DNA of 64,000 nt, taken from assembly GCF_024752355.1 (NCBI RefSeq), contig NZ_JANTHZ010000002.1:744001-808000 (forward strand). The letters run 5' to 3'. This DNA comes from Ancylobacter mangrovi. Its GTDB lineage: Bacteria; Pseudomonadota; Alphaproteobacteria; Rhizobiales; Xanthobacteraceae. Under the pieces are notes generated by a model that searched no databases, was not told the DNA's origin, and saw nothing but the letters and a program-made list of their open reading frames with translations. Below are positions 44,780-59,885 of the stretch, piece by piece; the stretch's first letter is position 1, and the number at the start of each line of letters is the position of its first letter. The position numbers and the translations under genes were made by a program.

Positions 44780-44788
44780 TGTGTCTCC

Positions 44789-44804: not shown

Positions 44805-44847
44805 ATTTTTGCCTTGCCTGTATGCTATGCATGCCCATTTGTTGGGC

Positions 44848-44876
44848 TTGCAGTCGATATTAAGTCACCGTTTAAT
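44848..44876 (+). promoter_or_regulatory. Possible promoter of the ABC1-monooxygenase operon
   Basis: TTGCAG (44848-44853), a 17-bp spacer, then TTTAAT (44871-44876). The -10 matches consensus at five of six positions and the -35 at three of six. It lies 40 bp upstream of the substrate-binding-protein start, in an AT-rich stretch. Confidence 0.45.
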
Positions 44877-44916
44877 AGCCTGGTCCAGCCCAATTCAGCG
44901 ACCAGGAGCTGCCCCG

Positions 44917-45996
44917 ATGAAGCGTATCTTTCAGGCCGCGGCCCTCGCCGTCGGCCTCGCCGCCGCGACCTTTGCAGGTTCGCTTCCCGCAGATGCCGCG
45001 CCGAAGAAGAGTTTCAAGCTCGCCTACACGGTCTACATCGGCTTCATGCCCTTCGCCTATCTCAAGCAGTCGGGCATCATGAAAAAATGGGCCGACAAGT
45101 ACGGCATCGATGTCGAGCTCATCCAGACCAATGACTATGTCGGGGGCGTCAACCAGTTCATCGCCGGCGACATGGACGCGGTCGGCGTCGCTTCGATGGA
45201 CGGGCTGACCATGCCGGCGGCCGGCGGCGTCGATACTTCGGTCTTCCTCATCACCGACTATTCGAACGGCAACGACATCCTCATGTCGAAGACCGCCAAG
45301 AGCGTGAAGGATCTGGTCGGCCAGGACGTCTACCTGCTGCAGTATTCGGTCTCGCACTATCTGCTGAACCGCGCCCTGCAGATGAACGGCATCGAGGACA
45401 CCTCCTCCGCCAAGGCGGTGAACATTTCCGACGCCGATATCTCGGCCGCCTATGTCTCGCAGGACACTGTGAAGAACGCGGTCTCCTGGAAGCCGCTGAC
45501 CGAGGACATGGAGAAGGTGCCGGGCACCACGGTGCTGTTCGATTCCTCGAAGATTCCCGGCGAGATCATGGACGTGTTCATCGCCCATACCGCGACGCTG
45601 AAGGACAACCCCGAATTCGCCAAGGCGGTGATCGGCGCCTGGTACGAGGCGCTCGGCATCCTGAAGGCGGGCGGCCCGAAGGCGGACGAGATGCGCGCCA
45701 TCATGACCAGCGCCATGGGCACGGATGCGAGCGGGCTGCAGTCGCAGATCGACACCACCCACTTCTTCTACACGCCGACCGAGGCCTACGACTTCCTGAC
45801 CTCGCCGGACAACGAGAAGATCTGGGACAACATCCGCACCTTCTGCTTCGACCAGGGCCTGTTCGGCCAGGGCGCGACCAGCGTGGATTCGATCGGCATC
45901 GAGGTCGCCGACGGCAACGTGCTGGGCGACAAGGGCAACATCAAGATGCGGATCAACGCCAGCTTCACCAAGGAAGCGGCCGACGGCAAGCTCTGA
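44917..45996 (+). CDS. ABC importer substrate-binding protein, urea-carboxylase-associated type
   Basis: 359 residues from the ATG at 44917 (AGGAG upstream), starting with a signal peptide that ends near ADAAPKK. The NMT1/THI5-like fold begins YTVYIGFMPFAYLKQSGIMKKW, seen as GFMPFAY. NDYVGGVNQF, DGLTMPAAGGVD and DYSNGND strongly recall the family found with urea carboxylase and guanidine metabolism. No carboxylase gene is present here; a flavin monooxygenase follows instead. The ligand is therefore open. A GC stem-loop follows the gene. Confidence 0.85.
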   Translation: MKRIFQAAALAVGLAAATFAGSLPADAAPKKSFKLAYTVYIGFMPFAYLKQSGIMKKWADKYGIDVELIQTNDYVGGVNQFIAGDMDAVGVASMDGLTMPAAGGVDTSVFLITDYSNGNDILMSKTAKSVKDLVGQDVYLLQYSVSHYLLNRALQMNGIEDTSSAKAVNISDADISAAYVSQDTVKNAVSWKPLTEDMEKVPGTTVLFDSSKIPGEIMDVFIAHTATLKDNPEFAKAVIGAWYEALGILKAGGPKADEMRAIMTSAMGTDASGLQSQIDTTHFFYTPTEAYDFLTSPDNEKIWDNIRTFCFDQGLFGQGATSVDSIGIEVADGNVLGDKGNIKMRINASFTKEAADGKL

Positions 45997-46014
45997 GCGC
46001 GCCCAAGGCGCGGC

Positions 46015-46040
46015 GCCGGCGCGGCTCCTCCCGCGCCGGC
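46015..46040 (+). other. GC stem-loop after the first ABC binding-protein gene
   Basis: A perfect 10-bp stem, GCCGGCGCGG (46015-46024) with CCGCGCCGGC (46031-46040), and a 6-nt loop start 18 bp after the stop. There is no T-tract. It separates the binding-protein gene from its permease gene. Confidence 0.7.
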
Positions 46041-46117
46041 CTGCCCGATCCCGACCGACGTAACCGCCCGACCCGTCCGTCTCCGGCCCCCTCGGCCCGC
46101 ATTCCGGCCCGGAAGGC

Positions 46118-46942
46118 ATGACCATGCGCCGCATCATCAACTACGCGCCCCGTCCGGGCGTGCGCATCATCCTCGCCGCCCTGCCCTTCATCGCGGTGCT
46201 GGCGATCTATGTGCTCGCCTCCAATGCGCGCCTCGCCGTCGAGCCGAACGACAAGCTCATGCCGGCGCTCGCGACCTTCTGGGCGACGCTGGTGCGCATG
46301 GCGACCACGGTCGACGTCGCCACCAAGACCTACCTGTTCTGGTGGGACACCTGGCTCAGCCTGTGGCGGCTGTTCCTCGGGCTCGGCATCTCGGCGCTGG
46401 TGGGGCTGGTGCTCGGCATCGTGGTCGGCTTCATCCCCTATCTGCGCTCGACCTTCGAGCCCTTCTTCGCCGCCTTCTCGCTGATCCCGCCGCTGGCGGT
46501 TCTGCCGATCCTGTTCATCATCTTCGGCCTCGGCGAGGTGTCGAAGATCGTGCTGATCGTGTTCGGCATCGCCCCCTTCATCATCCGCGACGTGATGCTG
46601 AGGGTGGCCTCGCTGCCCACCGAGCAGATCGTCAAGGCGCAGACGCTCGGCGCTTCCACCTGGCAGATGATCTCCGGCGTGGTGCTGCCGCAGGTGATGC
46701 CGCGCCTCATCGATTCGGTGCGGCTCTCGCTCGGCGCGGCGTGGCTGTTCGTCATCGCCGCCGAGGCCATCACCGCGGAGGGCGGGCTCGGCTACCGCAT
46801 CTTCCTGGTGCGGCGCTATCTCGCCATGGACGTGATCCTTCCCTACGTCGCCTGGATCACCCTGCTCGCCTTTCTCATGGATTACGTGCTGCGCAGGCTC
46901 TCCGCCGCCGCCTATCCGTGGGACAAGATCAAGGCGGCCTGA
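46118..46942 (+). CDS. ABC importer permease (ABC1)
   Basis: 274 residues with six membrane segments. The BPD/EAA loop appears as QIVKAQTLGASTWQMISGVVLPQVMPRLIDSVR, visible as TLGASTWQMI and VLPQVMPRLI. It belongs to the NitT/TauT/SsuC group and especially resembles permeases of the urea-carboxylase-associated importers. The ATPase gene starts directly after its stop codon (no gap). Confidence 0.9.
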   Translation: MTMRRIINYAPRPGVRIILAALPFIAVLAIYVLASNARLAVEPNDKLMPALATFWATLVRMATTVDVATKTYLFWWDTWLSLWRLFLGLGISALVGLVLGIVVGFIPYLRSTFEPFFAAFSLIPPLAVLPILFIIFGLGEVSKIVLIVFGIAPFIIRDVMLRVASLPTEQIVKAQTLGASTWQMISGVVLPQVMPRLIDSVRLSLGAAWLFVIAAEAITAEGGLGYRIFLVRRYLAMDVILPYVAWITLLAFLMDYVLRRLSAAAYPWDKIKAA

Positions 46943-47779
46943 ATGACCAAGATCGTCATCGACAACGTCTGGAAGGAATATGACGACCGGGTCGTGCTGG
47001 AGCGCGTCAACCTCGCGCTCGACGACCACGAGTTCCTCGTCATCATCGGCCCTTCCGGGGTCGGCAAGACCACGCTGCTGCGCCTGCTGCTGAGCCAGGA
47101 GACGCCCACGCGCGGGCGCATCCTGATCGACGGCGAGCCGATCGCCCCCGAGCCGACCGCCGATCGCGGCGTGGTGTTCCAGCGCTATTCGGTGTTCCCG
47201 CACAAGACCGTGCTGGGCAACGTGATGCTGGGCCCGCAATGGGCCGCCTCGCCGGTGCTCGGCCGGCTGTTCGGTGCGCGTCGGCGCGCGCTCGAGGCGC
47301 GGGCAATGGGGCTGCTGGAGCGGGTCGGCCTCGCCGATTCGGCGGACAAGTACCCCGCCCAGCTCTCCGGCGGCATGCAGCAGCGCCTCGCCCTCGCCCA
47401 GGCGCTGATCATGAAGCCGAAGGTGCTGCTGCTCGACGAGCCGTTCGGCGCGCTCGACCCGGGCACCCGCAAGTCGATGCACGAGCTGGTGCACGAATTG
47501 TGGGAGGAGAACGAGATGACCATCGTCATGGTCACGCACGACCTCTCCGAAGCCTTCCTGCTGGGCACCCGCGTGATCGCGGTCGACCGCCCGCGCACCG
47601 ACCCGCAGGCCCCCGAGCGGTTCGGCGCCACCATCGCCTCCGACTTCGAGGCCAAGATCCGCGCCGTGCGCGACTCCCACCGTTTCGAGAGTGAGCGCGA
47701 GAAGCTCCGCCTCACGCTCGTCTCCTCCCACGACCTGCCTGCGGATGGCCCGGCCGTCCGCGCCCTTGTGAAGGACTGA
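46943..47779 (+). CDS. ABC importer ATP-binding protein (ABC1)
   Basis: 278 residues. Walker A GPSGVGKTT, Q-loop VVFQRYSVFPHK, signature LSGGMQQRLALAQAL, Walker [12 protein letters not shown] and the H-loop VTHDLSEAFLLG are complete. The C-terminal 60 residues after the core are charged and are typical of the urea-carboxylase-associated branch rather than of SsuB/TauB. It follows the permease without a gap and precedes the monooxygenase by 5 bp, so all four genes are one transcript. Confidence 0.92.
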   Translation: MTKIVIDNVWKEYDDRVVLERVNLALDDHEFLVIIGPSGVGKTTLLRLLLSQETPTRGRILIDGEPIAPEPTADRGVVFQRYSVFPHKTVLGNVMLGPQWAASPVLGRLFGARRRALEARAMGLLERVGLADSADKYPAQLSGGMQQRLALAQALIMKPKVLLLDEPFGALDPGTRKSMHELVHELWEENEMTIVMVTHDLSEAFLLGTRVIAVDRPRTDPQAPERFGATIASDFEAKIRAVRDSHRFESEREKLRLTLVSSHDLPADGPAVRALVKD

Positions 47780-47784
47780 CGTCA

Positions 47785-49098
47785 ATGGCCGACAAGCGCT
47801 TCCATCTCGCCTGGTTTATGAACTTCACGCCCGACGAGTGGCGCGAGCCGTTCGGCCAGGGCGGCTATCCCTGGGACGGGCAGTTCTACATCGACATGGC
47901 GCAGTCGATGGAGCGCGCCTGCTTCGATCTCATCATGATCGAGGACAAGCTGATGGTGCCGGAGACCTATGGCGGCTCGCGCGACCTCTCGCTCAAGCAC
48001 GCCATGATGGTGCCGAAGGCCGATCCGGCGCCGCTCGCCGTCGCCATGGGCATGGCCACCAAGCATCTGGGCGTGGTCGCCACCATGTCGACCATGGCCT
48101 ACCCGCCCTTCATGCTGGCGCGCCTGTCCTCGACCATCGACAGCCTGACCAAGGGCCGCTTCGGCTGGAACGTCGTCACCTCGGCCGAGGACCTGATGGC
48201 GAAGAACTTCGGCATGGACAGGCTGCCCGCGCGCGAGGACCGCTACGCCATGGCGGACGAGTACATGGACGTGGTCGGCAAGCTGTTCGAGAGCTGGGAG
48301 CCGGACGCGGTGGTGCTCGACCGCAAGAACGGCGTCTATGCGGACGGCTCGAAGATCCACACCGTCGACCACAAGGGCAAGTACTACCAGGTGCGCGGGC
48401 CGCTCAACACCGTGCCCTCGCCGCAGCGCCGCCCGGTCTACCTTCAGGCCGGCGCCTCGCCGCGCGGGCGCGACTTCGCCGCCCAGCACGCGGACGCCAT
48501 CGTCTCGGTGGCGAACGGGGTGGAGGGGATGAAGGAGTTCCGCAGCGACATCCGCGCCCGGGCCGAGAAGTTCGGCCGCAACCCGGACGACATCAAGGTG
48601 TTCTTCTGCATCTGCCCGAGCCTCGGCGAGACCGAGGAGGAGGCGCAGGCGCGCTACCGGAACGTCACCATGTCGGACAATTTCGTCACCGACGTGCTGA
48701 TCTCGATTTCCGCCATCACCGAGATCGACTTCGCGCAGTTCGAGCTCGACAAGCCGCTGCCCGAGAAGCTCGTCACCAATGGCGAGTCCGGCACGCTCGA
48801 CAAGTTCCAGCAATGGGGCTCGGGCAAGACGCTGCGCCAGCTCGCGGCCGATGGCGGCGGCGGCCTCGTCTCCTCCATGGAGCTGATCGGCACGCCGGCG
48901 CAGGTGGCTGAGAAGATGGGCGCGGCGATGGCCGAGGTCGGGGGCGACGGCTTCCTCATCACCACGCCGGTGCTGCGGGTCTCGCGCCGCTACATCACCG
49001 AGATCTGCGACGGCCTGGTGCCGGAGCTGCAGTCGCGCGGGCTGGTGCGCACCGAATACAAGCACCAGCTCCTGCGCGACAATCTGCGGGAATTCTGA
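47785..49098 (+). CDS. NtaA/DmoA/SnaA-type FMNH2-dependent monooxygenase
   Basis: 437 residues, the typical length of the NtaA/SnaA/DszA/DmoA group of luciferase-like (LLM) flavoproteins. The fold begins FHLAWFMNF and includes MEDKLMVPETYGGS-like, GRFGWNVVTSAED and GKYYQVRGPLN elements of this subgroup. Such enzymes use FMNH2 from a partner reductase and O2 to cleave C-N or C-S bonds (nitrilotriacetate, EDTA, dimethyl sulfide, sulfones). It is encoded in one operon with an importer and a flavin reductase. The substrate is not deducible. Confidence 0.92.
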   Translation: MADKRFHLAWFMNFTPDEWREPFGQGGYPWDGQFYIDMAQSMERACFDLIMIEDKLMVPETYGGSRDLSLKHAMMVPKADPAPLAVAMGMATKHLGVVATMSTMAYPPFMLARLSSTIDSLTKGRFGWNVVTSAEDLMAKNFGMDRLPAREDRYAMADEYMDVVGKLFESWEPDAVVLDRKNGVYADGSKIHTVDHKGKYYQVRGPLNTVPSPQRRPVYLQAGASPRGRDFAAQHADAIVSVANGVEGMKEFRSDIRARAEKFGRNPDDIKVFFCICPSLGETEEEAQARYRNVTMSDNFVTDVLISISAITEIDFAQFELDKPLPEKLVTNGESGTLDKFQQWGSGKTLRQLAADGGGGLVSSMELIGTPAQVAEKMGAAMAEVGGDGFLITTPVLRVSRRYITEICDGLVPELQSRGLVRTEYKHQLLRDNLREF

Positions 49099-49143
49099 CG
49101 CCGCCCCATAGCCGCTTAGCCGGCTATCTGACGGAAGGGAGAG

Positions 49144-49704
49144 ATGGACATGGTCCCGTCTGTTCAGGACGACGTCCCCGGCCCGGCGCCCGGGCGGATC
49201 GCCGGGGTGACGCGCCAGCAATATCGTGACGCGATGGCCCGGCTCGGCGCCGCGGTGAACATCGTGACCACGGACGGCCCGGCCGGGCGCCACGGCTTCA
49301 CCGCCTCGGCGGTGTGCTCGGTGACCGACACGCCGCCGACCCTGCTGGTCTGCCTCAACAAGGGCAGCTCGGCGAGCGCGGTGTTCCACGCCAACGGCGT
49401 GCTGTGCGTGAACACGCTGGCGGCGGGGCACGAGGCGCTCTCCAACCTGTTCGGCGGGCGCACCCCGCCCGCCGAGCGCTTCGCAGCGGCGCAGTGGAAG
49501 GTGGCCGCCACCGGCGCGCCGATGCTGGTGGACGCGGTTGCGGCCTTCGACTGCCGGATCGTGCGCACGGTCGAGGTCGGCACCCATGACGTGCTGTTCT
49601 GCGAGGTGGTCGGCCTCGCCGAGGGCGGGGTCCCGCATGGCCTGATCTATTTCAGCCGCCGCTACCACGCCATTCGCGGCGGCCATGGCGGCGGGGAGGA
49701 GTGA
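49144..49704 (+). CDS. Flavin reductase (FMN-binding, RutF/HpaC-like)
   Basis: 186 residues. The split-barrel flavin reductase core is clear: [44 protein letters not shown] (as [12 protein letters not shown]) and [11 protein letters not shown]. It reduces FMN with NADH or NADPH and supplies FMNH2 to the monooxygenase encoded 45 bp upstream. It is the last gene of the ABC1-monooxygenase operon. Confidence 0.92.
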
Positions 49705-50138: not shown

Positions 50139-51125
50139 ATGCTGACTAAGAGCCTGCGCCGGTGCCTTGCCGGCGCGTTCACCGGGGCGGTCATGGCCGC
50201 GGCGGCGGCGCAGCCCGCCTCCGCCGGCAAGATCTCGATCGGTCACACGATCTGGGTCGGCTACGGGCCGCTCTACCTCGCCAGGGAGCTCGGCTACTTC
50301 AAGGACAACGGCGTCGACGTCGACTTCCAGGTGGTCGACGATTCCGCCCTCGCCATGGCGGCCCAGGCGGCCGGCAAGCTCGACGGCACCGCCACCACGC
50401 TGGACGAGATCCTGAAGTACCGCTCCGACAAGTTCTGCTTCAAGGCGGTGGCGCTGTTCGACGAGAGCCATGGCGGCGACGGCATGGTATCGGTGAAGGA
50501 GATCAACTCGCTGGACGACCTGAAGGGCAAGACGGTCGCCCTGAACGAGGGCTCGACCTCGCAGTTCTGGTTCTCCTACCTGCTGAAGAAGCAGGGCATC
50601 CCGCTCAAGGACGTCGAGGTGCTCAACATGAGCGCCGATGCCGCCGCGGCCGCCTTCATCGCCGGCCAGGTGCCGGTCGCCGTGACCTGGGAGCCGAACC
50701 TCACCCTGGTGAAGACCAAGAACGCCGGCAAGGTGCTGATGGACAGCGCCGCGACGCCGGGCGTCATCATCGACGTGCTGGAGATCTCCTGCTCGGTGCT
50801 GAAGGACCGTCCCGAGGACGTGAAGGGCTTCATCGCCGGGCTGCAGAAGGCGGTTGACTACATCAAGACCAACCCCGACAAGGCCTATGCCATCATGGCC
50901 AAAGGCGTCGGCGGCTATCTCACCGACCCGAAGGACTTCGCCGACGCCGCCTCGGGTGTGAAGTTCTACGATAAGCAGATGACGATCGACTATTTCGGCA
51001 CGCCGGAGAAGCCCGGCCCGGCCGCGGACGTGATCAAGCTCGGCAACGAGATCTGGACCGACCTCGGCAAGATCAAGACGCCGATCACCTACGACCAGAT
51101 CATCGACCCCAGCTTCACCCAGTGA
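50139..51125 (+). CDS. NitT/TauT-type ABC importer substrate-binding protein (ABC2)
   Basis: 328 residues from the ATG at 50139. Signal peptide ending near PASAGK; then KISIGHTIWVGYGPLYLARELGYFK, a classic SsuA/TauA/NMT1 start, visible as GYGPLYLAREL. NEGSTSQFWFSYLLKK is the second-lobe hallmark. It is distinct from the ABC1 binding protein and more like those for aliphatic sulfonates, taurine or pyrimidines. The ligand is unknown. A 13-bp stem-loop follows. Confidence 0.9.
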   Translation: MLTKSLRRCLAGAFTGAVMAAAAAQPASAGKISIGHTIWVGYGPLYLARELGYFKDNGVDVDFQVVDDSALAMAAQAAGKLDGTATTLDEILKYRSDKFCFKAVALFDESHGGDGMVSVKEINSLDDLKGKTVALNEGSTSQFWFSYLLKKQGIPLKDVEVLNMSADAAAAAFIAGQVPVAVTWEPNLTLVKTKNAGKVLMDSAATPGVIIDVLEISCSVLKDRPEDVKGFIAGLQKAVDYIKTNPDKAYAIMAKGVGGYLTDPKDFADAASGVKFYDKQMTIDYFGTPEKPGPAADVIKLGNEIWTDLGKIKTPITYDQIIDPSFTQ

Positions 51126-51131
51126 TCGCCG

Positions 51132-51163
51132 CCGGGGGCGCGCGCGAGGTCGCGCGTCCCCGG
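51132..51163 (+). other. Long GC stem-loop after the second ABC binding-protein gene
   Basis: CCGGGGGCGCGCG (51132-51144) pairs with CGCGCGTCCCCGG (51151-51163): 13 bp with one G-T, and a 6-nt loop, starting 6 bp after the stop. There is no T-tract. It is the strongest of three such stem-loops. Confidence 0.75.
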
Positions 51164-51192
51164 TTCCGATCCCGTGCCGGATGCGAGTTGCC

Positions 51193-51996
51193 ATGGCCCG
51201 CAAGCGTTCCATCATCGACCTCTGCCTGACGCCCAAGGCCGAAGTGCCGGGCCCGCTGCGCTATGCCGTCGCGACCTTCGTCTGGGTGCTGGTCATCGCC
51301 ATCTGGTCGATCCTGACCTATGGCGGCATCATGCAGGACATCTTCCTGCCCTCGCCGACCGCGGTGATGGGCGCCTTCTTCCGCCTGTTCGAGGACGGCA
51401 CGCTCAGCCAGCACATCTGGGCGAGCCTGCAGGTGGTCCTCATGGGCTTCATCATCTCTTCTATCATCGCCGTGCCGCTCGGCCTGCTGATGGGCACGTT
51501 CCGCGTGGTGCAGGCGGGGCTCGAGCCGCTGGTGAACTTCATCCGCTACCTGCCCGTGACCTCCTTCGTGCCGCTGTTCATCCTGTGGATCGGCATCGGC
51601 ATCGAGCAGCGGGTCACCGTCATCTTCTTCGGCACCTTCTTCCAGCAGCTCGTCATGATCGCCGACGTCTCGCGCGGCGTGTCGAAGGACCTGCTCAACG
51701 CGTCCTACACGCTCGGCGCCTCGCGGCGCGACGCGCTGCTCCACGTGCTCACCCCGGCGGCGCTGCCGGGTATCATGGACACGCTGCGCGTCACCATGGG
51801 CTGGGCCTGGACCTATCTGGTGGTCGCCGAACTCGTCGCCGCCTCCTCGGGCCTCGGCTACATCTCGATGAAGGCGATGCGCGGCTTTCAGGTCGACGTG
51901 ATCTTCCTGGCCATCGCGGTGATCGGCCTGCTCGGCCTGTTCACCGACCTCATCTTCCGCCTGATCAGCAACCGGCTCGTCGGGTGGGCGAACTGA
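51193..51996 (+). CDS. ABC importer permease (ABC2)
   Basis: 267 residues from the ATG at 51193; an ATG 12 bp upstream (51181) is equally possible. Six membrane segments and the EAA loop ASYTLGASRRDALLHVLTPAALPGIMDTLR, visible as TLGASRRDAL and TPAALPGIM, place it in the NitT/TauT group (SsuC-like). The ATPase gene follows after 56 bp. Confidence 0.9.
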   Translation: MARKRSIIDLCLTPKAEVPGPLRYAVATFVWVLVIAIWSILTYGGIMQDIFLPSPTAVMGAFFRLFEDGTLSQHIWASLQVVLMGFIISSIIAVPLGLLMGTFRVVQAGLEPLVNFIRYLPVTSFVPLFILWIGIGIEQRVTVIFFGTFFQQLVMIADVSRGVSKDLLNASYTLGASRRDALLHVLTPAALPGIMDTLRVTMGWAWTYLVVAELVAASSGLGYISMKAMRGFQVDVIFLAIAVIGLLGLFTDLIFRLISNRLVGWAN

Positions 51997-52052
51997 ATGG
52001 GCCGGCCGTTCGCGGACTACCTGAATTTCCTACCGACCAGCGAGGCAATGCC

Positions 52053-52904
52053 ATGAGCGTCGCGAATGTTCTGCGCGAGGAGCCGGTGCCGGCCGTCACG
52101 CCCGGCGAGGCGCCTGCCGCCAAGGCGCCGCCGCTCCTGCGCATCAAGGACGTGCGTCTCGAATACACCACCAAGACCAAGACCGTGGTGGCGATCGACA
52201 ACATCTCGATCGACGTGCCGGACAACCAGTTCGCCGTCATCGTCGGCCCCTCGGGCTGCGGCAAGTCGAGCCTGCTCTATCTCGTCGCCGGCCTGAACGA
52301 GCCGACCTCAGGCGAGATCCTGCTCGGCAATGAGGAGATCGACGGGCCGGGGCCGGACCGGGGCATGGTGTTCCAGTCCTACACGCTGTTCCCCTGGCTC
52401 ACCGTGCGCGAGAATGTCGAGTTCGGACTCAAGCGCCGCCACGTGCCGGCGGCCGAGCGCGAGGACATCGTCAACCGCTACCTCAACGAGACCGGCCTCG
52501 CCGCCTTCCACGACGCCTATCCCAAGCAGCTCTCGGGCGGCATGATGCAGCGCGTGGCGATCGCCCGCGCGCTCGCCAACGACCCGAAGATCCTGCTGAT
52601 GGACGAGCCCTTCGGCGCGCTCGACAGCCAGACCCGCAACTCGATGCAGAAGCTGCTGCTGCGGGTGTGGGAGCAGCACAAGAAGACCGTGCTGTTCGTC
52701 ACCCACGACATCGACGAGGCGATCCTGCTCGGCGACCGCATCTATGTGATGACCGCCCGCCCGGGCCGGCTGAAGGAAGAGGTGGTGGTGCCGATCGCCC
52801 GTCCGCGCAACATGGACATGGTGATGGACCCGTCCTTCATCGCCGTGAAGCGGCGGATCCTCGAGCTGCTCAAGAACGAGATCAAGGACGACGACGAGCA
52901 TTGA
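52053..52904 (+). CDS. ABC importer ATP-binding protein (ABC2)
   Basis: 283 residues. Walker [11 protein letters not shown]-loop [14 protein letters not shown], signature [15 protein letters not shown], Walker [12 protein letters not shown] and the H-loop [14 protein letters not shown] are intact. It is of SsuB/TauB type. The 25-residue N-terminal leader before [10 protein letters not shown] is Pro/Ala-rich. It is probably co-transcribed with the binding protein and permease, and possibly with the enzymes downstream. Confidence 0.92.
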
Positions 52905-53041
52905 GGCGCGCCGCGCCGCCTGGGGGCGGGCGGACCCAGCAGGGGGCCGGTGCTCCCGCGCCGTTTCCCCGTCCTCTTGCTCCGCCCGCGCGGCCGCCGC
53001 ACAGTCGCGGCGGTCCCCCGATCCGGTACGCGGCGAAAGCG

Positions 53042-54124
53042 ATGACCGACAATGCGCAGACCGGGCTCCCGCCTTCCGCGACGGGCTGGGAGCCGGCGCC
53101 GGCCGACACCCGCGCCCGGGCGGCGGCGCGGCTGTCCGGCCTCGCGGCGCATTTCGAGGGTTGGGCGGACGCCAATCTCCACGGCGTGGTGATGGTCCAT
53201 CGCGGCAGGCTGCTCTACGAGCACTATTTCACCGGCGAGGACCGCGCCTTCGCCCGACCGCTCGGCCGGGTCGCCTATCATGCAGGGCTGCGCCACGACC
53301 TGCGCTCGATCACCAAGAGCGTCGTCTCGCTGCTGGTCGGTATCGGCGTCGGCGAGGGCTGGATCGGCGATCTGGACACGCCGGTGCTGGCGCTGTTTCC
53401 CGAGCCTGCCCGCCACGCGACGCCGGAGAAGGCCGCCATCACGCTCCGGCACCTGCTCACCATGTCGGCCGGCCTCGCCTGGAACGAGGATCTTCCCTAC
53501 AGCGACCCCGCCAACAGCGAGCGCCGCATGATCGATGCGCCGGACCGCTGCGGCTATGTGCTGGCGCAGCCGCTGGTGCGCACGCCGGGTGCCGCCTATC
53601 GCTACAATGGCGGCCTCACCCTCTTGCTGGCCACGGCGCTGGAGCGCGGCTCCGGCCGGACCATCGACGCGCTGGCGCGCGACCTGCTGTTCGCCCCGCT
53701 CGGCATCGCGGATGTGGAATGGCACCGCTATGACGACGGCGCGGCCAATCCGGTGTCGGGCCTGCGGCTCGTCCCGCGCGACGTGGCGCGGCTCGGCGAA
53801 CTGGTGCTGCGCGGCGGCCGGTACGCGGGCCGGCAGGTCGTGCCCGAGGGCTGGATCGCCGAATCGACGGCGCCGCAGATCCATGGCGAAGGGCTCTATT
53901 TCTACGGCTTCCACTGGTGGCTCGGCCGTTCGCTGGTCGCGCGGCGGGAGATCCGCTGGATCGCCGGCATCGGCTATGGCGGCCAGCGCCTCTACATCGT
54001 GCCGGAGCTCGACCTCGTGGTGGCGGTGACCGCCGGCCTCTATGACGAGCCGGTGCTCCAAGGCATGGTCGGCGACGTCGTCCTGCGCCGCTACGCGCTG
54101 CCCGCCGCACTGGAAGCGGGGTGA
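53042..54124 (+). CDS. Serine hydrolase, beta-lactamase/class C-like fold
   Basis: 360 residues. The Ser-x-x-Lys motif is SITK with Ser89 and Lys92, in LRSITKSVVSLLVG. A Tyr/Asn element (YRYNGG) at about 186-189 stands for the second motif, and a GYGGQ segment near 310 for the third. This family contains esterases, amidases and 6-aminohexanoate-dimer hydrolases; no signal peptide is present, so it acts in the cytoplasm. It lies 137 bp after the ABC2 ATPase gene and may cleave an imported ester or amide. Confidence 0.85.
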   Translation: MTDNAQTGLPPSATGWEPAPADTRARAAARLSGLAAHFEGWADANLHGVVMVHRGRLLYEHYFTGEDRAFARPLGRVAYHAGLRHDLRSITKSVVSLLVGIGVGEGWIGDLDTPVLALFPEPARHATPEKAAITLRHLLTMSAGLAWNEDLPYSDPANSERRMIDAPDRCGYVLAQPLVRTPGAAYRYNGGLTLLLATALERGSGRTIDALARDLLFAPLGIADVEWHRYDDGAANPVSGLRLVPRDVARLGELVLRGGRYAGRQVVPEGWIAESTAPQIHGEGLYFYGFHWWLGRSLVARREIRWIAGIGYGGQRLYIVPELDLVVAVTAGLYDEPVLQGMVGDVVLRRYALPAALEAG

Positions 54125-54181
54125 CGCGCCGTGCTTCGCCCCGGATCCCCCTTTCCCGACCTTCGAGCCGATCGGTAGACC

Positions 54182-54952
54182 ATGACCCGACCCTCCCTGT
54201 TCGATCTTGCCGGCCGCAAGGCCCTGGTGACCGGCGCCAGCCGCGGCATCGGCCGCCGGATCGCCGGCGCGCTCGCTGCCGCCGGTGCCGATGTCGCAGT
54301 GGCCGCGCGCGGGCTCGACGCGCTCGCCGACACGGCAAGCGACATCGCCGCGCTCGGCCGCCGCGCGGTGCCGCTGGCGCTCGACGTGACCGACGCCGAG
54401 CGCTGCCGCCTCGCGGTGGAGGCGGCGGCGGGCGAGCTGGGCGGGCTCGACATCCTCGTCAACAATGCCGGCATGGAGCAGGTCCGCCCCTCGCTGGAGG
54501 TGGACGAGGCGCTGTGGGACGCGATCCTCGACACCAATCTCAAGGGTGCCTTCTTCTGCGCCCAGTCCGCCGCCCGGCTGATGAAGGGGGCGGGCGGGGG
54601 GGCGATCATCAATCTGTGCTCGCTGACATCGCAGGTCGGCATCCCGACCGCCGTTCCCTATGGCTCGTCCAAGTCCGGCCTGCTCGGCATGACGCGCGCG
54701 CTGGCGGCGGAGTGGGCGGGGCTCGGCATCCGCGTCAACGCCATCGCGCCGGGCTATTTCCGCACCGCCATGACCGAGGTGTTCTACGAAGATGCCGGCT
54801 GGCAGGACGCGATGCTGGCCAAGATCCCGATGCGCCGCTTCGGCGAGCTGGCCGATCTCGACGGCATCGCGGTGTTCCTCGCCTCCGACGCCTCGGCCTA
54901 CATTACCGGCCAATGCTTCCCGGTGGACGGCGGCTTCCTCGCCTCGATCTGA
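54182..54952 (+). CDS. SDR-family oxidoreductase
   Basis: 256 residues, classical SDR. Cofactor-binding TGASRGIG is near residue 20, NNAG near 95, catalytic Tyr160 and Lys164 lie in PYGSSKSG, with a Ser about 13 residues before. The Asp/Arg after the second strand (AARGLDAL) suggests NADP(H), but this is uncertain. It probably oxidises or reduces a hydroxyl of the pathway intermediate. The gap to the upstream hydrolase is 57 bp. Confidence 0.9.
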   Translation: MTRPSLFDLAGRKALVTGASRGIGRRIAGALAAAGADVAVAARGLDALADTASDIAALGRRAVPLALDVTDAERCRLAVEAAAGELGGLDILVNNAGMEQVRPSLEVDEALWDAILDTNLKGAFFCAQSAARLMKGAGGGAIINLCSLTSQVGIPTAVPYGSSKSGLLGMTRALAAEWAGLGIRVNAIAPGYFRTAMTEVFYEDAGWQDAMLAKIPMRRFGELADLDGIAVFLASDASAYITGQCFPVDGGFLASI

Positions 54953-55072
54953 GGAACGGAGCCGGGCCGCGCCTGCCGATTGGGCAGCGGGAGCGACAAG
55001 TTTGGTCTCCCCTCGCCGTGATTAAGACTATACATATTTCCGTCCCGGATGAGGCGGCTGAGAGGTTCTGTC

Positions 55073-56401
55073 ATGACCGACATCTGCAATTTCCACGAGC
55101 TCGCCACCATGGACGCGGCCGCCCGCGCCGGCCTGCTTAAGCGTTCGGAGACCGACCTCTCGACCTTCATCGAGAAGGTCCGCCCGATCGTCGAGGCGGT
55201 ACGCACGGAAGGCGACGAGGCGCTGGCGCGCTTCGGCCGCGAGCTCGACAGGGCCGACGTCACGGCCGACCGGCTGAAGGCCAGCGAGGCGGAATTCGAC
55301 GAGGCGTTCCGGCTGGTCGCCCCCGAGGTGATCGAATCGATCGAGTTCGGCATTTCCAATATCCGCAGCTTTCACGAGGAGCAGGCGCCCGAGCCGATGT
55401 GGCTGAAGGAGGTGCGCCCCGGCGCCTTCGCCGGCGACCGCTGGACGCCGATCGAATCCGCCGCGCTCTACGTGCCGCGCGGCAAGGGCGCCTTTCCCTC
55501 GGTGACGATGATGACCGCCGTGCCGGCGAGCGTCGCCAAGGTGCCGAACATCTCGATCGTGACCCCGCCGACCGAGACCGGCGGCGTCGACGCCGCGACC
55601 CTCGTCGCCGCCCGGCTCGCCGGCGTCGAGACGGTCTACAAGTGCGGCGGCGCGCAGGCGGTGGCGGCGGTCGCCTACGGCACGCAGACGGTGAGGAAGG
55701 CGATCAAGATCGTCGGCCCCGGCTCGCCCTGGCTGGTGGCCGCCAAGCGCCTGCTCTCCGACATCATCGACACCGGGCTCCCCGCCGGCCCCTCGGAGGC
55801 GATCATCTTCGCCGACGGCACGGTGAACGGCGCGGTTGCGGCGCTCGACCTGCTGATCGAGGCCGAGCACGGGCCGGATTCCTCCGCCTATCTCGTTACC
55901 CATTCGCGCGAGCTGGCGGAAGCCGCGCGCGCCGCCCTGCCCGGGCATTGGGGGCGGATGAGCGAGCAGCGCGTCGCCTTTTCGAAGGCGGTGCTGAGCG
56001 GCAAGTGCGGGGGCATCGTGCTGACCTCCTCGCTGGAGGAGAGCTACGACTTCGTCAACGCCTATGCGCCCGAGCACCTCGAGATCCTCTCCACCGACCC
56101 GTTCGCGCATCTGGGGCGGATCACCGAGGCGGCGGAGGTGCTGATGGGACCCTATACGCCGGTGACCATCGCCAATTTCACCCTCGGCCCCAATGCCGTG
56201 CTGCCGACCAGCCGCTGGGCACGCACCTACGGGCCGCTCTCGGTCACCGACTTCCTCAAGCGCTCCTCGGTCGGCTACGTCACCGGCACCGCCTATCCGG
56301 AATTCGCCGGCCACGCCCGCCGGCTCGCGCGCTATGAGGGCTTCTCCAGCCATGAGAACGCGGTCTCCGGGCTGCGCGACGACCTGCTGAAGGGCGGCTG
56401 A
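55073..56401 (+). CDS. Histidinol-dehydrogenase paralogue, catabolic type
   Basis: 442 residues from the ATG at 55073, with GAGAGG upstream. It has the HisD fold throughout. The catalytic Glu334-His335 pair (YAPEHLEI) is kept. The zinc-ligand positions differ from HisD: the Gln before AEH is Glu263, the Asp of GDY is Asn368 and the substrate His of NHVLPT is Ala375, while His266 and His427 remain. No his gene is near. Relatives include sulfopropanediol 3-dehydrogenase (HpsN). It is likely an NAD-dependent dehydrogenase of a small polyol or sulfonate, not a histidine enzyme. ADH follows after 3 bp. Confidence 0.88.
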   Translation: MTDICNFHELATMDAAARAGLLKRSETDLSTFIEKVRPIVEAVRTEGDEALARFGRELDRADVTADRLKASEAEFDEAFRLVAPEVIESIEFGISNIRSFHEEQAPEPMWLKEVRPGAFAGDRWTPIESAALYVPRGKGAFPSVTMMTAVPASVAKVPNISIVTPPTETGGVDAATLVAARLAGVETVYKCGGAQAVAAVAYGTQTVRKAIKIVGPGSPWLVAAKRLLSDIIDTGLPAGPSEAIIFADGTVNGAVAALDLLIEAEHGPDSSAYLVTHSRELAEAARAALPGHWGRMSEQRVAFSKAVLSGKCGGIVLTSSLEESYDFVNAYAPEHLEILSTDPFAHLGRITEAAEVLMGPYTPVTIANFTLGPNAVLPTSRWARTYGPLSVTDFLKRSSVGYVTGTAYPEFAGHARRLARYEGFSSHENAVSGLRDDLLKGG

Positions 56402-56404
56402 GGC

Positions 56405-57436
56405 ATGAAGGCGGTCCGGCTCCACGGCGCGGGCGACCTGAGGGTCGAGGAGGTGCCGCCTCCCGGCACGCCGGCGGCCGGCTGGGTGCGGCTGAAGGTC
56501 GGCGCGGCCGGCATCTGCGGTTCGGACATCCACAATTTCCGCACCGGCCAGTGGATCACCCGCGCGCCGTCCATCGCCGGCCACGAGCTGACCGGGGTGG
56601 TGGTCGAGACCGGCGCGGGCGTCGAAGGCTTCGCGCCGGGCGACGCGGTGGTGGCGGATTCGCGCTTCTGGTGCGGGGATTGCCCGGCCTGCCGGGCGGG
56701 GCGGCATCATCTGTGCGAGAAGCTCGGTTTCGTCGGCGAGGCATGCGATGGCGGCTTCGCGGAGGAGGTGGTGCTGCCCGCGCGGCTGCTGCTGCCGGTT
56801 CCGGCCGAGCTCGCCCCGGCGGTGGCGGCGATGGCCGAGCCGCTGGCGGTGGCGCTGCACGCGGTGCGCCGGCTGGCGCCGCAACCGGGCGAGCCGGTGC
56901 TGGTGGTGGGCTGCGGGCCGATCGGCGGGCTCGCGGCGCTCGTCCTCGCGCGGGGAGGCGACGGGGTGCCTCATGACGGGCCGGTCCTCGTCGCCGACCG
57001 CAATGGCGCGCGGGCGGCTCTTGTGGCGGAGGTGACCGGCGCGCAGAGCGTCGCGCTCGACGCCGGCGACCTCCGCGCGGCGCTGGACGGCCGGCTTCCC
57101 GCCGCCTCCATCGAGGCGACCGGCAGCCCGGCGGCGCTCTCGGCCTTGACCGGGGTGATGGAGGGCGGCGGACGGGTGGCGCTGGTCGGCATCTATCACG
57201 GCCGTCTCGACCTCGATCCGAACCGGATGGTCGAGCACGAATTGTCGATGATCGGCTGCCACGCCTTCACCGACGAGCTGCCGCAGGCGGTGACGCTGCT
57301 ACCCGCGCTCCAGAGCGACCTCCTGCGCCTCGTCGACCGCGAGATCGGCCTCGACGAGGTGCCCGCCGCCTATGAGCGGCTGATCGCGGGTGAGGCGGAC
57401 GGGCTCAAGACCATCATCCGCCCGGGCCGGCCGTGA
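56405..57436 (+). CDS. Zinc-dependent medium-chain alcohol dehydrogenase
   Basis: 343 residues. The catalytic zinc site has Cys in GICGSDIH and His in AGHELTG; the structural zinc site has four Cys in CGDCPACRAGRHHLC. The Rossmann motif is VVGCGPIGGLAA. The sequence style is that of sorbitol, threonine or idonate dehydrogenases, which act on a secondary alcohol of a polyol. It starts 3 bp after the HisD paralogue and its stop overlaps the kinase start (GTGA). Confidence 0.92.
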   Translation: MKAVRLHGAGDLRVEEVPPPGTPAAGWVRLKVGAAGICGSDIHNFRTGQWITRAPSIAGHELTGVVVETGAGVEGFAPGDAVVADSRFWCGDCPACRAGRHHLCEKLGFVGEACDGGFAEEVVLPARLLLPVPAELAPAVAAMAEPLAVALHAVRRLAPQPGEPVLVVGCGPIGGLAALVLARGGDGVPHDGPVLVADRNGARAALVAEVTGAQSVALDAGDLRAALDGRLPAASIEATGSPAALSALTGVMEGGGRVALVGIYHGRLDLDPNRMVEHELSMIGCHAFTDELPQAVTLLPALQSDLLRLVDREIGLDEVPAAYERLIAGEADGLKTIIRPGRP

Positions 57437-58743
57437 GCATGTCGAGCCGCACCGCGCAGATCCGCGCGCTGGCGCAGCGCGACCCGGCACTCGCCGAGGC
57501 GCCGCTCGCCGCGCTGCTGGCCGACCTGTTCGGCATCGCGCCGCGCAACGTGGCGATCAATCTCGACCGCTACAGCCTCAACTCGCTCAACGGCTTCTTC
57601 GAGACCGATGCGGAGGCCTTCTTCTTCAAGTTCCATCAGGAGGAAGGCGAGGAGGCGATGGCCGGCGAGTATTACCGTGCCGACATCCTCGCCCGCGCCG
57701 GCCTTCCGGTGGACCAGCCGGTGCATGTCTCGGCCGAGCCCGGCGAGCAGATCCTGGTCTATCGCCGCCGCGACGAGCCGCGCTTTTCCGACGTGCTGCG
57801 CGCGCTCGACATGGAGGACGACCCGGCGGCGCGGGCGGTGGCGGTGGAGGCCGAGCGCGGGCTCAGCCGCGCCCTCATCGCCACCTATCGCGCCAGCCTG
57901 CATCCCGTCACGGCGGGGGAGGTGGCGGCCGAGCCGATCCACCGGCTGTTCCACGAGCGGCTGGTCACGCATGGCGCGGCGGGGGAAGCCTATCCCGGCG
58001 GGCGCTACCGGGAGTTCTATCTCGGCCGCCGCTTCGCCTTTCCCGGCCTCGCGCTCGACTGGGCGGACCTGTCGACGCGGCGCTTCACCGTCAACGGCGT
58101 GACCTATGCCCGTACGCTCGGCGAGCTGTTCGACGCGGCAGAGGCCCGCCTGCGCCCGGAGCGGCTCGCCGATGCCGGTGGGGTGGTCGCTCATGGCGAC
58201 GCGCACAACGCCAATGTCTGGTTCACTCGTGGCGACAGAAACGGCGAAGCGGGCGCGCGGCTCTCCTTCTTCGACCCGGCCTTTGCGGGGGAGAACGTGC
58301 CGGCCCTGCTGGCCGAGGTGAAGGCGACGTTCCACAACGTGTTCGCCCATCCGTTCTGGCTCTACGACCCGGACCTCGCCAGCACGCGCTTTTCCGCCGC
58401 TGCGCGGCTCGCCCCGGGCGAATTGATCGTCGAGACCGACTGGGCGCCGAGCCCGGTGCGCGCCGATCTCCTCGCCGTGAAGGCGGACGAGGTGTGGCGC
58501 CCGCTGCTCGCCGAGCTCGCGGCCCGCGCCCTGCTGCCGCCCGACTGGCGCGAGGTGATCCGCCTCGCCCTGTTCCTGTGCCCGACGCTGGTGATGGATC
58601 TGCGCGCCGGCGCGCGCACCCACACGCCGATCTCCTCATTGATCGGCCTGTCGGTCGCGGTCATGGTCGGCTCCCCGCCGCTCCAGGGCGCGGACGCCGT
58701 CACCCGTTTCCTCGACCGCATCGACCCGGACCTGCCCCGATGA
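57433..58743 (+). CDS. APH-fold small-molecule kinase (phosphotransferase)
   Basis: 436 residues from a GTG at 57433, which overlaps the upstream stop by 4 nt; an ATG at 57439 is also possible. The catalytic loop HGDAHNAN has His254 and Asp256, and the magnesium Asp281 is in FFDPAF, as in choline and aminoglycoside kinases. It should phosphorylate a small hydroxylated molecule with ATP. Given the polyol-type dehydrogenases on both sides, a sugar-like or alcohol intermediate is more likely than an antibiotic. It overlaps the next gene by 4 nt. Confidence 0.85.
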   Translation: MSMSSRTAQIRALAQRDPALAEAPLAALLADLFGIAPRNVAINLDRYSLNSLNGFFETDAEAFFFKFHQEEGEEAMAGEYYRADILARAGLPVDQPVHVSAEPGEQILVYRRRDEPRFSDVLRALDMEDDPAARAVAVEAERGLSRALIATYRASLHPVTAGEVAAEPIHRLFHERLVTHGAAGEAYPGGRYREFYLGRRFAFPGLALDWADLSTRRFTVNGVTYARTLGELFDAAEARLRPERLADAGGVVAHGDAHNANVWFTRGDRNGEAGARLSFFDPAFAGENVPALLAEVKATFHNVFAHPFWLYDPDLASTRFSAAARLAPGELIVETDWAPSPVRADLLAVKADEVWRPLLAELAARALLPPDWREVIRLALFLCPTLVMDLRAGARTHTPISSLIGLSVAVMVGSPPLQGADAVTRFLDRIDPDLPR

Positions 58744-59885
58744 GCCTCATCAATGTCGACGACGCCCGCGCCATCGCCCGGCGCCGTCTGCCGCGCATCT
58801 TCTTCGATTATGTCGACGGCGGCGCCTTCGCCGAGGACACGCTGCGGGCCAACCGGGAGGATTTCGGCCGCTGGACGCTGGTGCAGCGCGTGCTCAACGA
58901 CATCTCGGTGCGCGATCTCTCGACCGAGTTCCTCGGCACCCGCCACCCGCTGCCCTTCATGCTGGGGCCGGTCGGCTTCCTCGGGCTCTACGCCGCGCGC
59001 GGCGAGATCGCGGCGGCGCGGGCCGCCCATGCCGCGGGCATCCCGCTGTGCCTGTCGACCTTCTCCATCGCCTCGCTGACCGAGCTCCGGGCGGCGACGC
59101 AGGGGCCGCTGCATTTCCAGCTCTATGTCATGTCGGACCGTGCCATCGGCGAGGAGCTGATCGCGCAGGCCCGCGCGGCCGGGGTCGATACGCTCTACCT
59201 CACCGTCGACACCGCGATCACCAGCGTGCGCGAGCGCGACCTGCGCAACGGCTTCCGCTCGCTCACCCGGATCACGCCGGGTCTCGCCCTGCGCCTCGCC
59301 ACCCGCCCCGGCTGGTGCGTCGAGATGCTGCGCGCGGGGATGCCGGAGGTCGGCGCGGTCAAGCACCGGCCCGAGTTCGGCCGGGGCGCGCTGGAGCAGG
59401 CGAGCAACCTGTCGCGGCGGATCGACACCCGCCTGTCCTGGAAGGATGTCGACTGGCTGCGCGCGCGCTGGGACGGCAAGCTGGTGCTGAAGGGCGTGCT
59501 CGCGCCCGAGGACGCGATGACCGCCCGCGCGACCGGCGTTGACGCGATCGTGGTCTCCAACCATGGCGGGCGCCAGCTCGACGGTGCCTCCTCCACCATC
59601 GCCGCGCTGCCGGCGATCGCCGACGCGCTGGGCGGCGACCTCGACATATTGTTCGACGGCGGGGTGCGGCGCGGTGCCGACATCGTGAAGGCGCTCGCGC
59701 TCGGCGCCTCCGGCGTACTGCTCGGTCGGGCCTATGTGTTCGGCCTCGGCGCCGCCGGGGAGGCGGGCGTCGCCCGCATGATCGCGCATCTGCGCGAGGA
59801 GGTGGACATCACGCTGGCGCTGATGGGGCTGACCTCGATCGACGCGCTGAAACGGCTCGGGCGCGCGGCATTGAACCCGCGCTGA
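58740..59885 (+). CDS. FMN-dependent alpha-hydroxy-acid oxidase/dehydrogenase
   Basis: 381 residues, a TIM-barrel member of the LldD/glycolate oxidase family. The active-site His275 and Arg278 are in SNHGGRQLDG; the start FDYVDGGA and RVLNDISVRDLSTEFLG are usual. It oxidises a 2-hydroxy acid (lactate, glycolate, mandelate or similar) to the 2-oxo acid. It overlaps the kinase gene by 4 nt and ends the tight ADH-kinase-oxidase group. Confidence 0.92.
   Translation: MSLINVDDARAIARRRLPRIFFDYVDGGAFAEDTLRANREDFGRWTLVQRVLNDISVRDLSTEFLGTRHPLPFMLGPVGFLGLYAARGEIAAARAAHAAGIPLCLSTFSIASLTELRAATQGPLHFQLYVMSDRAIGEELIAQARAAGVDTLYLTVDTAITSVRERDLRNGFRSLTRITPGLALRLATRPGWCVEMLRAGMPEVGAVKHRPEFGRGALEQASNLSRRIDTRLSWKDVDWLRARWDGKLVLKGVLAPEDAMTARATGVDAIVVSNHGGRQLDGASSTIAALPAIADALGGDLDILFDGGVRRGADIVKALALGASGVLLGRAYVFGLGAAGEAGVARMIAHLREEVDITLALMGLTSIDALKRLGRAALNPR

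What the first reader, a model, noticed from the sequence alone, without database searches (positions are those of the whole stretch)
50139..59885. Undescribed catabolic module: importer, hydrolase, three dehydrogenases, kinase, 2-hydroxy-acid oxidase
On one strand and with mostly small gaps lie a NitT/TauT ABC importer, a serine hydrolase, an SDR, a HisD paralogue, a zinc ADH, an APH-fold kinase and an FMN oxidase. No known pathway I can recall has this set. A logical order would be import, ester or amide cleavage, oxidation of hydroxyls, phosphorylation, and oxidation of a hydroxy acid. The following glpDK fits an outflow to dihydroxyacetone phosphate. This is the best candidate for a new system in the window.
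Basis: inference. Interest (0 to 1): 0.8.

Follow-up and report, generated by a model that had tools for sequence, protein, structure and literature searches.

The report
Probable histidine-feeding imidazole-alcohol catabolic operon
A conserved set of bacterial genes probably imports a small imidazole-bearing alcohol and oxidises it, with an unusual form of the enzyme histidinol dehydrogenase, to histidine or a close relative that the cell then burns for carbon and nitrogen.

Summary
The genes are real and in line. An SDR, a HisD-family dehydrogenase, a zinc ADH, an APH-fold kinase and sometimes an FMN hydroxy-acid oxidase, with one of three ABC importers, recur together across 101 examined loci of alphaproteobacteria. 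The serine hydrolase and glpD do not recur (0 of 101 each). The HisD copy is neither canonical HisD nor the sulfonate enzyme HpsN: it belongs to a separate clade, mostly with motif GKG[AS]F, whose two zinc-ligand positions read Glu and Asn instead of Gln and Asp. Members of this clade are the only HisD-family match in 15 genomes that also have IGPD (HisB), and some lie in his clusters, so the clade probably makes histidine from histidinol. Module relatives carry a HutC-like regulator (57 of 101), a HisC-like or aromatic transaminase (46 of 82) and hut genes within 4 kb (16 of 101; canonical HisD loci 0 of 20). In S. meliloti a matching gene set falls together with hut and nitrogen-regulation genes (PMC2912261, passages). 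Best reading: an imidazolyl C3 alcohol is imported and oxidised to histidine for Hut. Substrate and kinase step are unproven.

The parts
50139..51125 (+). NitT/TauT (SsuA-like) solute-binding protein of the importer
   Evidence: Pfam NMT1 99 bits; 89-91% identical SBP beside the module in six of seven Ancylobacter loci; nearest solved structure only 46 bits, so the ligand is not predictable
51181..51996 (+). ABC permease of the importer
   Evidence: Pfam BPD_transp_1 85 bits; 85-87% identical in the same six Ancylobacter loci
52053..52904 (+). ABC ATPase of the importer
   Evidence: Pfam ABC_tran 115 bits; 84-92% identical in the same six Ancylobacter loci
53042..54124 (+). beta-lactamase-fold serine hydrolase; lies in the run but is probably NOT part of the module
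   Evidence: Pfam Beta-lactamase 113.7 bits; found in 0 of 101 module loci
54182..54952 (+). short-chain dehydrogenase (gluconate-5-dehydrogenase-like), in the place that HpsO has in the DHPS trio
   Evidence: in 87 of 101 loci; best solved match 4j2h 372 bits, HpsO 8wwf 162 bits
55073..56401 (+). HisD-family alcohol dehydrogenase of the 'E/N' clade (motif RGKGAFPS; Glu263 and Asn368 at zinc-ligand positions; catalytic Glu334/His335)
   Evidence: Pfam Histidinol_dh 442 bits, TIGR00069 418 bits over cut-off 243.8; residues conserved in 88 of 88 aligned rows; clade; in 98 of 101 loci
56405..57436 (+). zinc-dependent medium-chain alcohol dehydrogenase (threonine/butanediol-dehydrogenase-like), in the place that HpsP has in the DHPS trio
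   Evidence: Pfam ADH_N 100 bits; in 88 of 101 loci; PDB matches
57433..58743 (+). APH-fold small-molecule kinase; GTG start overlaps the ADH stop codon
58743..59885 (+). FMN-dependent L-2-hydroxyacid dehydrogenase/oxidase (mandelate/lactate type)
   Evidence: Pfam FMN_dh 433 bits; in 31 of 101 loci; lactate oxidase 7f22 301 bits, mandelate dehydrogenase 6bfg 277 bits

Best explanation
A nitrogen- and carbon-scavenging operon for an imidazole compound with an oxygenated three-carbon side chain (histidinol, or the deaminated relatives imidazolyl-propanediol, imidazole acetol, imidazolelactate). The ABC importer brings it in. SDR and zinc ADH interconvert the stereoisomers or oxidise the secondary alcohol, like HpsO and HpsP in dihydroxypropanesulfonate catabolism. 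The E/N-type HisD oxidises the terminal CH2OH to COOH in one four-electron step, giving histidine (from histidinol) or imidazolelactate (from the diol). Where present, the FMN oxidase turns imidazolelactate into imidazolepyruvate, and a transaminase (HisC-like or aromatic type in relatives; a generic one in this genome) makes histidine. Histidine enters the genome's own hut pathway (HutH, U, I, G, F and HutC homologues on contig C18). The kinase probably phosphorylates the side-chain hydroxyl on a branch that uses a HisC-like transaminase (imidazole acetol phosphate to histidinol phosphate). Shown: the gene set, its conservation, its linkage to hut, HutC-like and HisC-like genes in relatives, and the separate HisD clade with his-cluster members. 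Inferred: every chemical step, the substrate, and the role of the kinase.
For: Conservation: of 101 kinase loci, HisD in 98, ADH 88, SDR 87. Link to histidine: HutC-like regulator 57 of 101; a hut catabolic gene in 16 of 101, always 0.26-3.7 kb from a core gene, in about ten lineages; transaminase in 46 of 82 well-flanked loci (HisC-like 41, aromatic 5, never both). Kinase-less relatives: SDR-HisD-ADH beside a full hut cluster in L195; HisD on the same strand 0.35-1.2 kb behind hutU in L202, L281 and L280. Controls: hut genes near canonical HisD 0 of 20, near HpsN-like genes 0 of 14. The E/N clade probably does histidinol chemistry: only HisD-family match in 15 genomes with IGPD, beside hisF/A/H/B in L299 and hisC-hisB and hisF in L298. 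Module copies and 14 his-cluster, sole or second copies share the mapped zinc (263, 266, 368, 427) and catalytic (334, 335) residues without exception. In an S. meliloti tolC mutant a gene set of the same order (hisC3, ABC, hisD2, GntR) falls 8- to 23-fold, with hutU, hutG, hutH, ntrB and ntrC (PMC2912261, passages). This genome has hutH over its cut-off and homologues of the other hut genes.
Against: The window cluster itself has no HutC-like regulator, transaminase or hut gene; its hut cluster is on another contig and no gene over the NF003496 cut-off (HisC3 type) is in the genome. The FMN oxidase is in only 31 of 101 loci. The kinase is absent from seven SDR-HisD-ADH loci (four of them one genus), so its step is not essential. 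If HisD simply makes histidine from histidinol, SDR, ADH and kinase are hard to place. Seven columns (79, 187, 210, 222, 364, 371, 401) separate module copies from the other E/N copies, 371 close to Asn368, so the substrates may differ. The residue that holds the imidazole in HisD (MtHDH Glu455) is also kept in HpsN and does not prove an imidazole substrate. Hut adjacency may reflect shared nitrogen control rather than shared chemistry; 85 of 101 loci show no hut catabolic gene in the fetched flanks. The loci are not an independent sample (many Mesorhizobium and Rhizobium).
Confidence: 0.6

Rival explanations
1. The substrate is not an imidazole. The HutC-like, HisC-like and HisD-like proteins are paralogues recruited for another nitrogenous alcohol, and lie near hut because both are nitrogen-scavenging operons.
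For: HutC-like and HisC-like families are broad; the two module HutC-like proteins scanned score over TIGR02018 but below the stricter PRK14999 cut-off (about 242 bits against 424). The other enzymes' nearest relatives are generic. S. meliloti co-regulation was with the wider nitrogen regulon. Seven HisD columns differ from the his-cluster copies.
Against: Three histidine-family gene types plus hut adjacency in about ten lineages, HisD on the same strand behind hutU in L202, L280 and L281, and shared zinc and catalytic columns with his-cluster copies.
Confidence: 0.2
2. Salvage rather than catabolism: the module turns imported histidinol-type compounds into histidine for protein synthesis.
For: E/N HisD is the only HisD-family match in 15 genomes with IGPD; kinase-bearing L132 and L133 come from genomes (94% complete each) with no IGPD match, so they may need exogenous precursors.
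Against: Link to hut catabolic genes and HutC-like repressors; this genome has its own canonical HisD and hut genes; nitrogen-regulon behaviour in S. meliloti.
Confidence: 0.1
3. Dihydroxypropanesulfonate (or another sulfonated or plain C3 polyol) catabolism; the trio SDR + HisD family + zinc ADH equals HpsO + HpsN + HpsP.
For: Same three superfamilies as HpsO/HpsN/HpsP (PMC11131964, passages); the window SBP matches SsuA-type sulfonate binders best, though under their cut-off (137 bits against 163.5); the FMN enzyme could act on a sulfolactate-like acid.
Against: HpsN motif G-R-Y-A/S-H absent (88 of 88 rows have G-K-G-A/S-F); the HisD copy scores 254 bits to HisD and 166 to HpsN; the SDR is nearer to other enzymes than to HpsO, the ADH nearer to others than to 8wwd, which I take to be HpsP from its neighbouring PDB codes. 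The genome has a separate HpsN-family protein elsewhere (398 bits).
Confidence: 0.06
4. One reading: ester or amide cleavage by the serine hydrolase, then oxidation and phosphorylation, with outflow through glpDK to dihydroxyacetone phosphate.
For: The genes are neighbours on one strand in this window.
Against: Hydrolase and GlpD homologues in 0 of 101 module loci; in Ancylobacter L028 the ATPase gene is followed by the SDR with no room for the hydrolase.
Confidence: 0.03

Closest known systems
HpsO-HpsN-HpsP dihydroxypropanesulfonate dehydrogenases (hpsRNOUPsuyAB of Cupriavidus pinatubonensis; Roseobacteraceae)
   Same: SDR + HisD-family + zinc ADH in one operon with an importer; the HisD-family enzyme there does a four-electron alcohol-to-acid oxidation
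   Different: HisD copy lacks the HpsN motif and the Lys that follows the zinc Asp in HpsN; the SDR is not closest to HpsO; kinase, HutC-like regulator, transaminase and hut linkage in relatives; no sulfolyase was looked for
Canonical histidinol dehydrogenase HisD (EC 1.1.1.23)
   Same: Fold family, catalytic Glu-His pair, both zinc His positions, TIGR00069 over cut-off
   Different: 39% identical to this genome's own HisD; Glu for Gln and Asn for Asp at zinc-ligand positions; GKGAF motif; catabolic gene neighbourhood
Hut histidine utilisation pathway (hutHUIGF, HutC repressor)
   Same: Relatives of the module share the regulator type and in 16 of 101 loci lie beside hut genes
   Different: Hut starts at histidine; this module would feed it from an alcohol precursor
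S. meliloti pSymA hisC3 / ABC / hisD2 / GntR region (SMa0387-SMa0402)
   Same: Gene order and names match locus L108; falls with hut and nitrogen genes in a tolC mutant (PMC2912261)
   Different: Polyamine-type importer instead of NitT/TauT; no function assigned in the passages seen

Membership tests
DHPS catabolism (HpsN) | HpsN motif G-R-Y-A/S-H (PMC11382572, passages) | tested here: not met
   G-K-G-A/S-F in 88 of 88 aligned rows, two of them duplicate loci
DHPS catabolism (HpsN) | Closest solved relative is HpsN | tested here: not met
   HisD 4g07 254 bits, HpsN 8wwe 166 and 8v35 165 bits
DHPS catabolism (HpsN) | SDR + HisD-family + zinc ADH in one operon | tested here: met
   window gene order; trio conserved
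DHPS catabolism (HpsN) | Sulfolactate-degrading genes (SuyAB, Xsc) alongside | not tested
   no search was made with these families
Histidinol dehydrogenase (HisD) | TIGR00069 equivalog-domain model over cut-off | tested here: met
   418.1 bits against 243.8
Histidinol dehydrogenase (HisD) | Zinc ligands Gln, His, Asp, His | tested here: not met
   Glu263, His266, Asn368, His427 in 88 of 88 rows; positions mapped
Histidinol dehydrogenase (HisD) | Catalytic Glu-His pair | tested here: met
   Glu334-His335, 88 of 88 rows
Histidinol dehydrogenase (HisD) | Activity on L-histidinol | not testable with these tools
   clade members are the only HisD-family match in 15 genomes with IGPD, which makes it likely for the clade
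Hut-linked catabolic module | hut catabolic genes in the neighbourhood more often than for control genes | tested here: met
   16 of 101 kinase loci against 0 of 20 canonical HisD and 0 of 14 HpsN-like loci
Hut-linked catabolic module | hut or HutC-like genes beside the window copy | tested here: not met
   none of the hut or HutC queries matched the window; hut cluster on contig C18
APH-type small-molecule kinases | Fold | tested here: met
APH-type small-molecule kinases | Pfam APH gathering score | tested here: not met
   18.5 bits against 23.2
NitT/TauT ABC importers | NMT1-type solute-binding protein with permease and ATPase | tested here: met

The most novel reading that the evidence does not exclude
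A dedicated pathway reuses the last steps of histidine biosynthesis for catabolism of free imidazole alcohols: SDR/ADH make imidazole acetol from imidazolyl-propanediol, the APH-fold kinase makes imidazole acetol phosphate, a HisC paralogue makes histidinol phosphate, and a second, zinc-ligand-swapped class of histidinol dehydrogenase makes histidine for Hut. In favour: HisC-like genes occur in 46 of 101 kinase loci and 0 of 7 kinase-less trio loci (Fisher p 0.02; related loci, so weak).
Probability: 0.2. Interest if true: 0.8.

Novelty: new variant of a known kind. Interest (0 to 1): 0.6.

Why it matters
It would add an entry route to the Hut pathway in rhizobia and other alphaproteobacteria, pointing to an overlooked imidazole nutrient in soil and rhizosphere. 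It also defines a second class of histidinol dehydrogenase with a changed zinc site, which seems to serve biosynthesis in some genomes and catabolism in others; both are directly testable with one purified enzyme and one deletion in a laboratory strain. Genes annotated as spare hisD, hisC and hutC copies would get a function.

Tried and rejected
Rejected: DHPS/polyol pathway (motif and scores). Rejected: serine hydrolase and glpD as members (0 of 101 each). Rejected as diagnostic: the imidazole-holding Glu, because HpsN has it too; and the His-to-Ala change at position 375, because other E/N copies show His, Ala or Asn there. Led nowhere: importer specificity (nearest solved SBPs 46 and 44 bits); neighbourhoods of the kinase-less loci L269, L270, L272, L274 and L288, read by eye, gave no further substrate hint. 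Gene associations within the 101 kinase loci: FMN oxidase with HisC3 p 0.13, FMN oxidase with HutC2 p 0.66, HisC3 with PotD p 0.32; FMN oxidase occurs only where ADH does (31 of 88 against 0 of 13, p 0.008).

Dropped before counts: L017 and L018 as duplicates of L057 and L105; the residue counts (88 HisD rows, 92 kinase rows) still contain these two. Exceptions: L020, L073 and L095 hold the kinase without HisD; L073 is a 6-kb contig, L020 and L095 are about 20 kb; in the genome of L020 (G085) an E/N HisD lies elsewhere (L274). L301 is on the E/N side but reads GKNQY instead of GKG[AS]F, and L294 reads GKGCF. L296 holds a second, short HisD-like match of 18% of the query, below the limit. The control stretches L188 and L207 are 11 and 13 kb instead of 20. 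Of 16 stretches fetched two (L195, L202) proved to be E/N copies and are not in the control of 14. The tree program warned that long branches meet between the HpsN-like rows and the E/N rows; the residue split does not depend on the tree.
Full report

Is it a unit? A search of 199 genomes of the order found the kinase in 13, one of them a weak 80-residue match. In the species collection 240 stretches encode a relative, of which the best 80 were kept. I compared gene order around the kinase in 101 loci: 80, 9 after dropping the duplicates L017 and L018, 8 more distant alphaproteobacterial ones and 4 plasmid loci picked by HisD. HisD was present in 98, ADH in 88, SDR in 87, FMN oxidase in 31, the serine hydrolase in 0 and GlpD in 0 (identity thresholds in the script). 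Of 82 loci with at least 7 kb on both sides, 78 carried one of three importers: the window's NitT/TauT type (7), a second NitT/TauT type (33) or a PotABCD-like type (38). So the module is real, but without the hydrolase and glpD. The nearest relatives are seven Ancylobacter loci: four have the same order as the window without the hydrolase, two have the importer on the other side and strand, and L075 lacks the importer; HisD is 88-90% identical in six and 78% in L075. The one genome of the same genus and the five of the same family searched lack the kinase and the E/N HisD, so the distribution is patchy.

Link to histidine. Many relatives carry three more gene types that the window copy lacks. 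One is a GntR/HutC-like regulator between ADH and kinase (57 of 101; TIGR02018 274 and 287 bits against cut-off 220 in the two scanned). One is a transaminase, HisC-like (NF003496 over cut-off in the two scanned) or aromatic type (one scanned), in 46 of 82 well-flanked loci and never both. The third is hut genes: 16 of 101 loci hold at least one hut catabolic gene (hutH in 11), always 0.26-3.7 kb from a core gene, among them Aureimonas, Devosia, Pleomorphomonas, Shinella and Metarhizobium. In L021 and L024 the hutF, H and I genes, and in L024 also hutG and hutU, were over NCBIfam cut-offs. Controls: 20 canonical HisD loci and 14 HpsN-like loci have no hut gene. E/N HisD loci without the kinase show the same link: L195 has HutC-SDR-HisD-ADH facing hutF, U, G, H, I; L202 and L281 have hutI, H, G, U and then HisD on the same strand, 0.35 and 0.46 kb on; L280 has hutI, G and U and then HisD 1.2 kb on, with no hutH match. 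The window's genome has HutC, U, G, H, I and F homologues together on contig C18 (hutH over its cut-off).

The HisD copy. This genome has three HisD-family proteins: a canonical one (L002, 39% identical), an HpsN-family one (L003, 398 bits to CpHpsN) and the window copy. The published motifs that separate HisD (G-S-A-P-L) from HpsN (G-R-Y-A/S-H) (PMC11382572, passages) do not fit it: the window and all 87 aligned module relatives have G-K-G-A/S-F. At the zinc-ligand positions (Gln299, His302, Asp401, His460* in Medicago HDH; PMC5585171, passages; mapped through) they have Glu, His, Asn, His in 88 of 88; the catalytic Glu-His pair is kept. A profile search found close relatives in 34 of 199 order genomes and 23 of 385 class genomes. 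All the E/N proteins compared have Glu and Asn, and all but L301 have GKG followed by A, S or C and F. In a tree of 62 rows the 49 E/N proteins lie on one side of a branch with SH-aLRT 99. Of 30 genomes checked, 18 have the E/N protein as their only HisD-family match at E<=1e-30, and 15 of these 18 have IGPD/HisB (G181 is only 86% complete). In G514, G433, G333, G533, G232, G457 and G503 it lies within 4.3 kb of hisB by the coordinates. L299 has hisF, A, H and B around it, all over NCBIfam cut-offs; L298 has hisC (over cut-off) fused to an IGPD domain, and hisF. Sixteen module or trio copies and 14 his-cluster, sole or second copies share all mapped zinc and catalytic residues; within the motif they differ only through L301 and the A/S position, they vary at 369 and 375, and they are separated by seven other columns. 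I infer that E/N proteins are histidinol dehydrogenases of a second zinc-site class, and that the module copy acts on histidinol or a close analogue.

Published expression. In S. meliloti 1021 a tolC mutant showed SMa0387 hisC3 -11.4, SMa0391/0392/0394/0396 -8 to -23.5, SMa0398 hisD2 -10.6 and SMa0402 GntR -8.4, together with hutU, hutG, hutH, ntrB and ntrC; the authors call the transporter of unknown function and connect the drop to NtrC (PMC2912261, passages). The order and names match the pSymA locus L108 of another strain; I did not align the SMa sequences themselves. Two other papers mention the region: SMa0392 as a target of the small RNAs AbcR1/2 (PMC8844928, passages), and hisD2 and SMa0391 in tables of a PhaR study (PMC12542648, passages); neither passage gives a substrate. 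This supports a nitrogen-bearing substrate and co-regulation.

Mechanism and rivals. The closest working parallel is DHPS catabolism, where an SDR, a HisD-family enzyme and a zinc ADH handle the two enantiomers (PMC11131964, passages). Replacing the sulfonate by an imidazole gives: imidazolyl-propanediol to imidazolelactate (HisD), to imidazolepyruvate (FMN oxidase), to histidine (transaminase), to Hut; or, with kinase and HisC-like enzyme, through imidazole acetol phosphate and histidinol phosphate to histidinol and histidine. HisC-like genes are absent from the 7 kinase-less SDR-HisD-ADH loci (four of one genus) but present in 46 of 101 kinase loci (Fisher p 0.02; related loci). Which branch runs, and which compound is imported, remains inference. 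Rivals are listed with their evidence.

Literature. Searches showed no description of this module in what they listed: 'histidinol utilization' 0 papers; the papers listed (20 of 353; 25 of 33) held none of the phrases searched for histidinol catabolism or utilisation. Unlisted papers were not seen and the library is open-access only. I recall older reports of bacteria growing on histidinol (Arthrobacter histidinolovorans), not checked here.

Noticed in passing
window 44159-49704: Just upstream lies another set: a TetR-like reading frame on the other strand, a second NitT/TauT-like importer (by eye), an NtaA/DmoA-family FMN monooxygenase (423.9 bits, cut-off 279.7) and a RutF-like flavin reductase (250.6 bits, just under cut-off 254.75), which looks like a separate two-component oxidation operon.
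   Followed up: partly
L295-L301, L282-L284, L277, L202, L280, L278, L292: E/N-type HisD is the only HisD-family match in 15 genomes with IGPD, some inside his clusters: apparently a second, unrecognised zinc-site class of biosynthetic histidinol dehydrogenase.
   Followed up: yes
L003/L208 (this genome), L196, L198, L200, L203: HpsN-like proteins with G-K-Y/F-P-M instead of the published HpsN motif G-R-Y-A/S-H, possibly yet another substrate class.
   Followed up: no
L132, L133: In two small alphaproteobacterial genomes with no IGPD match, HisD and kinase lie near a class-I glutamine amidotransferase-like protein (by eye in L132, Pfam in L133), and in L133 also a Cys/Met-type PLP enzyme.
   Followed up: partly
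L108 11163-11959 (S. meliloti ml56 pSymA): The second permease gene of the PotABCD-like importer matches in two overlapping pieces and is not in the gene table, so it may be disrupted in this strain.
   Followed up: no
window 43391-44131: A class-I glutamine amidotransferase-like protein (Pfam GATase 55 bits) of unknown role.
   Followed up: no
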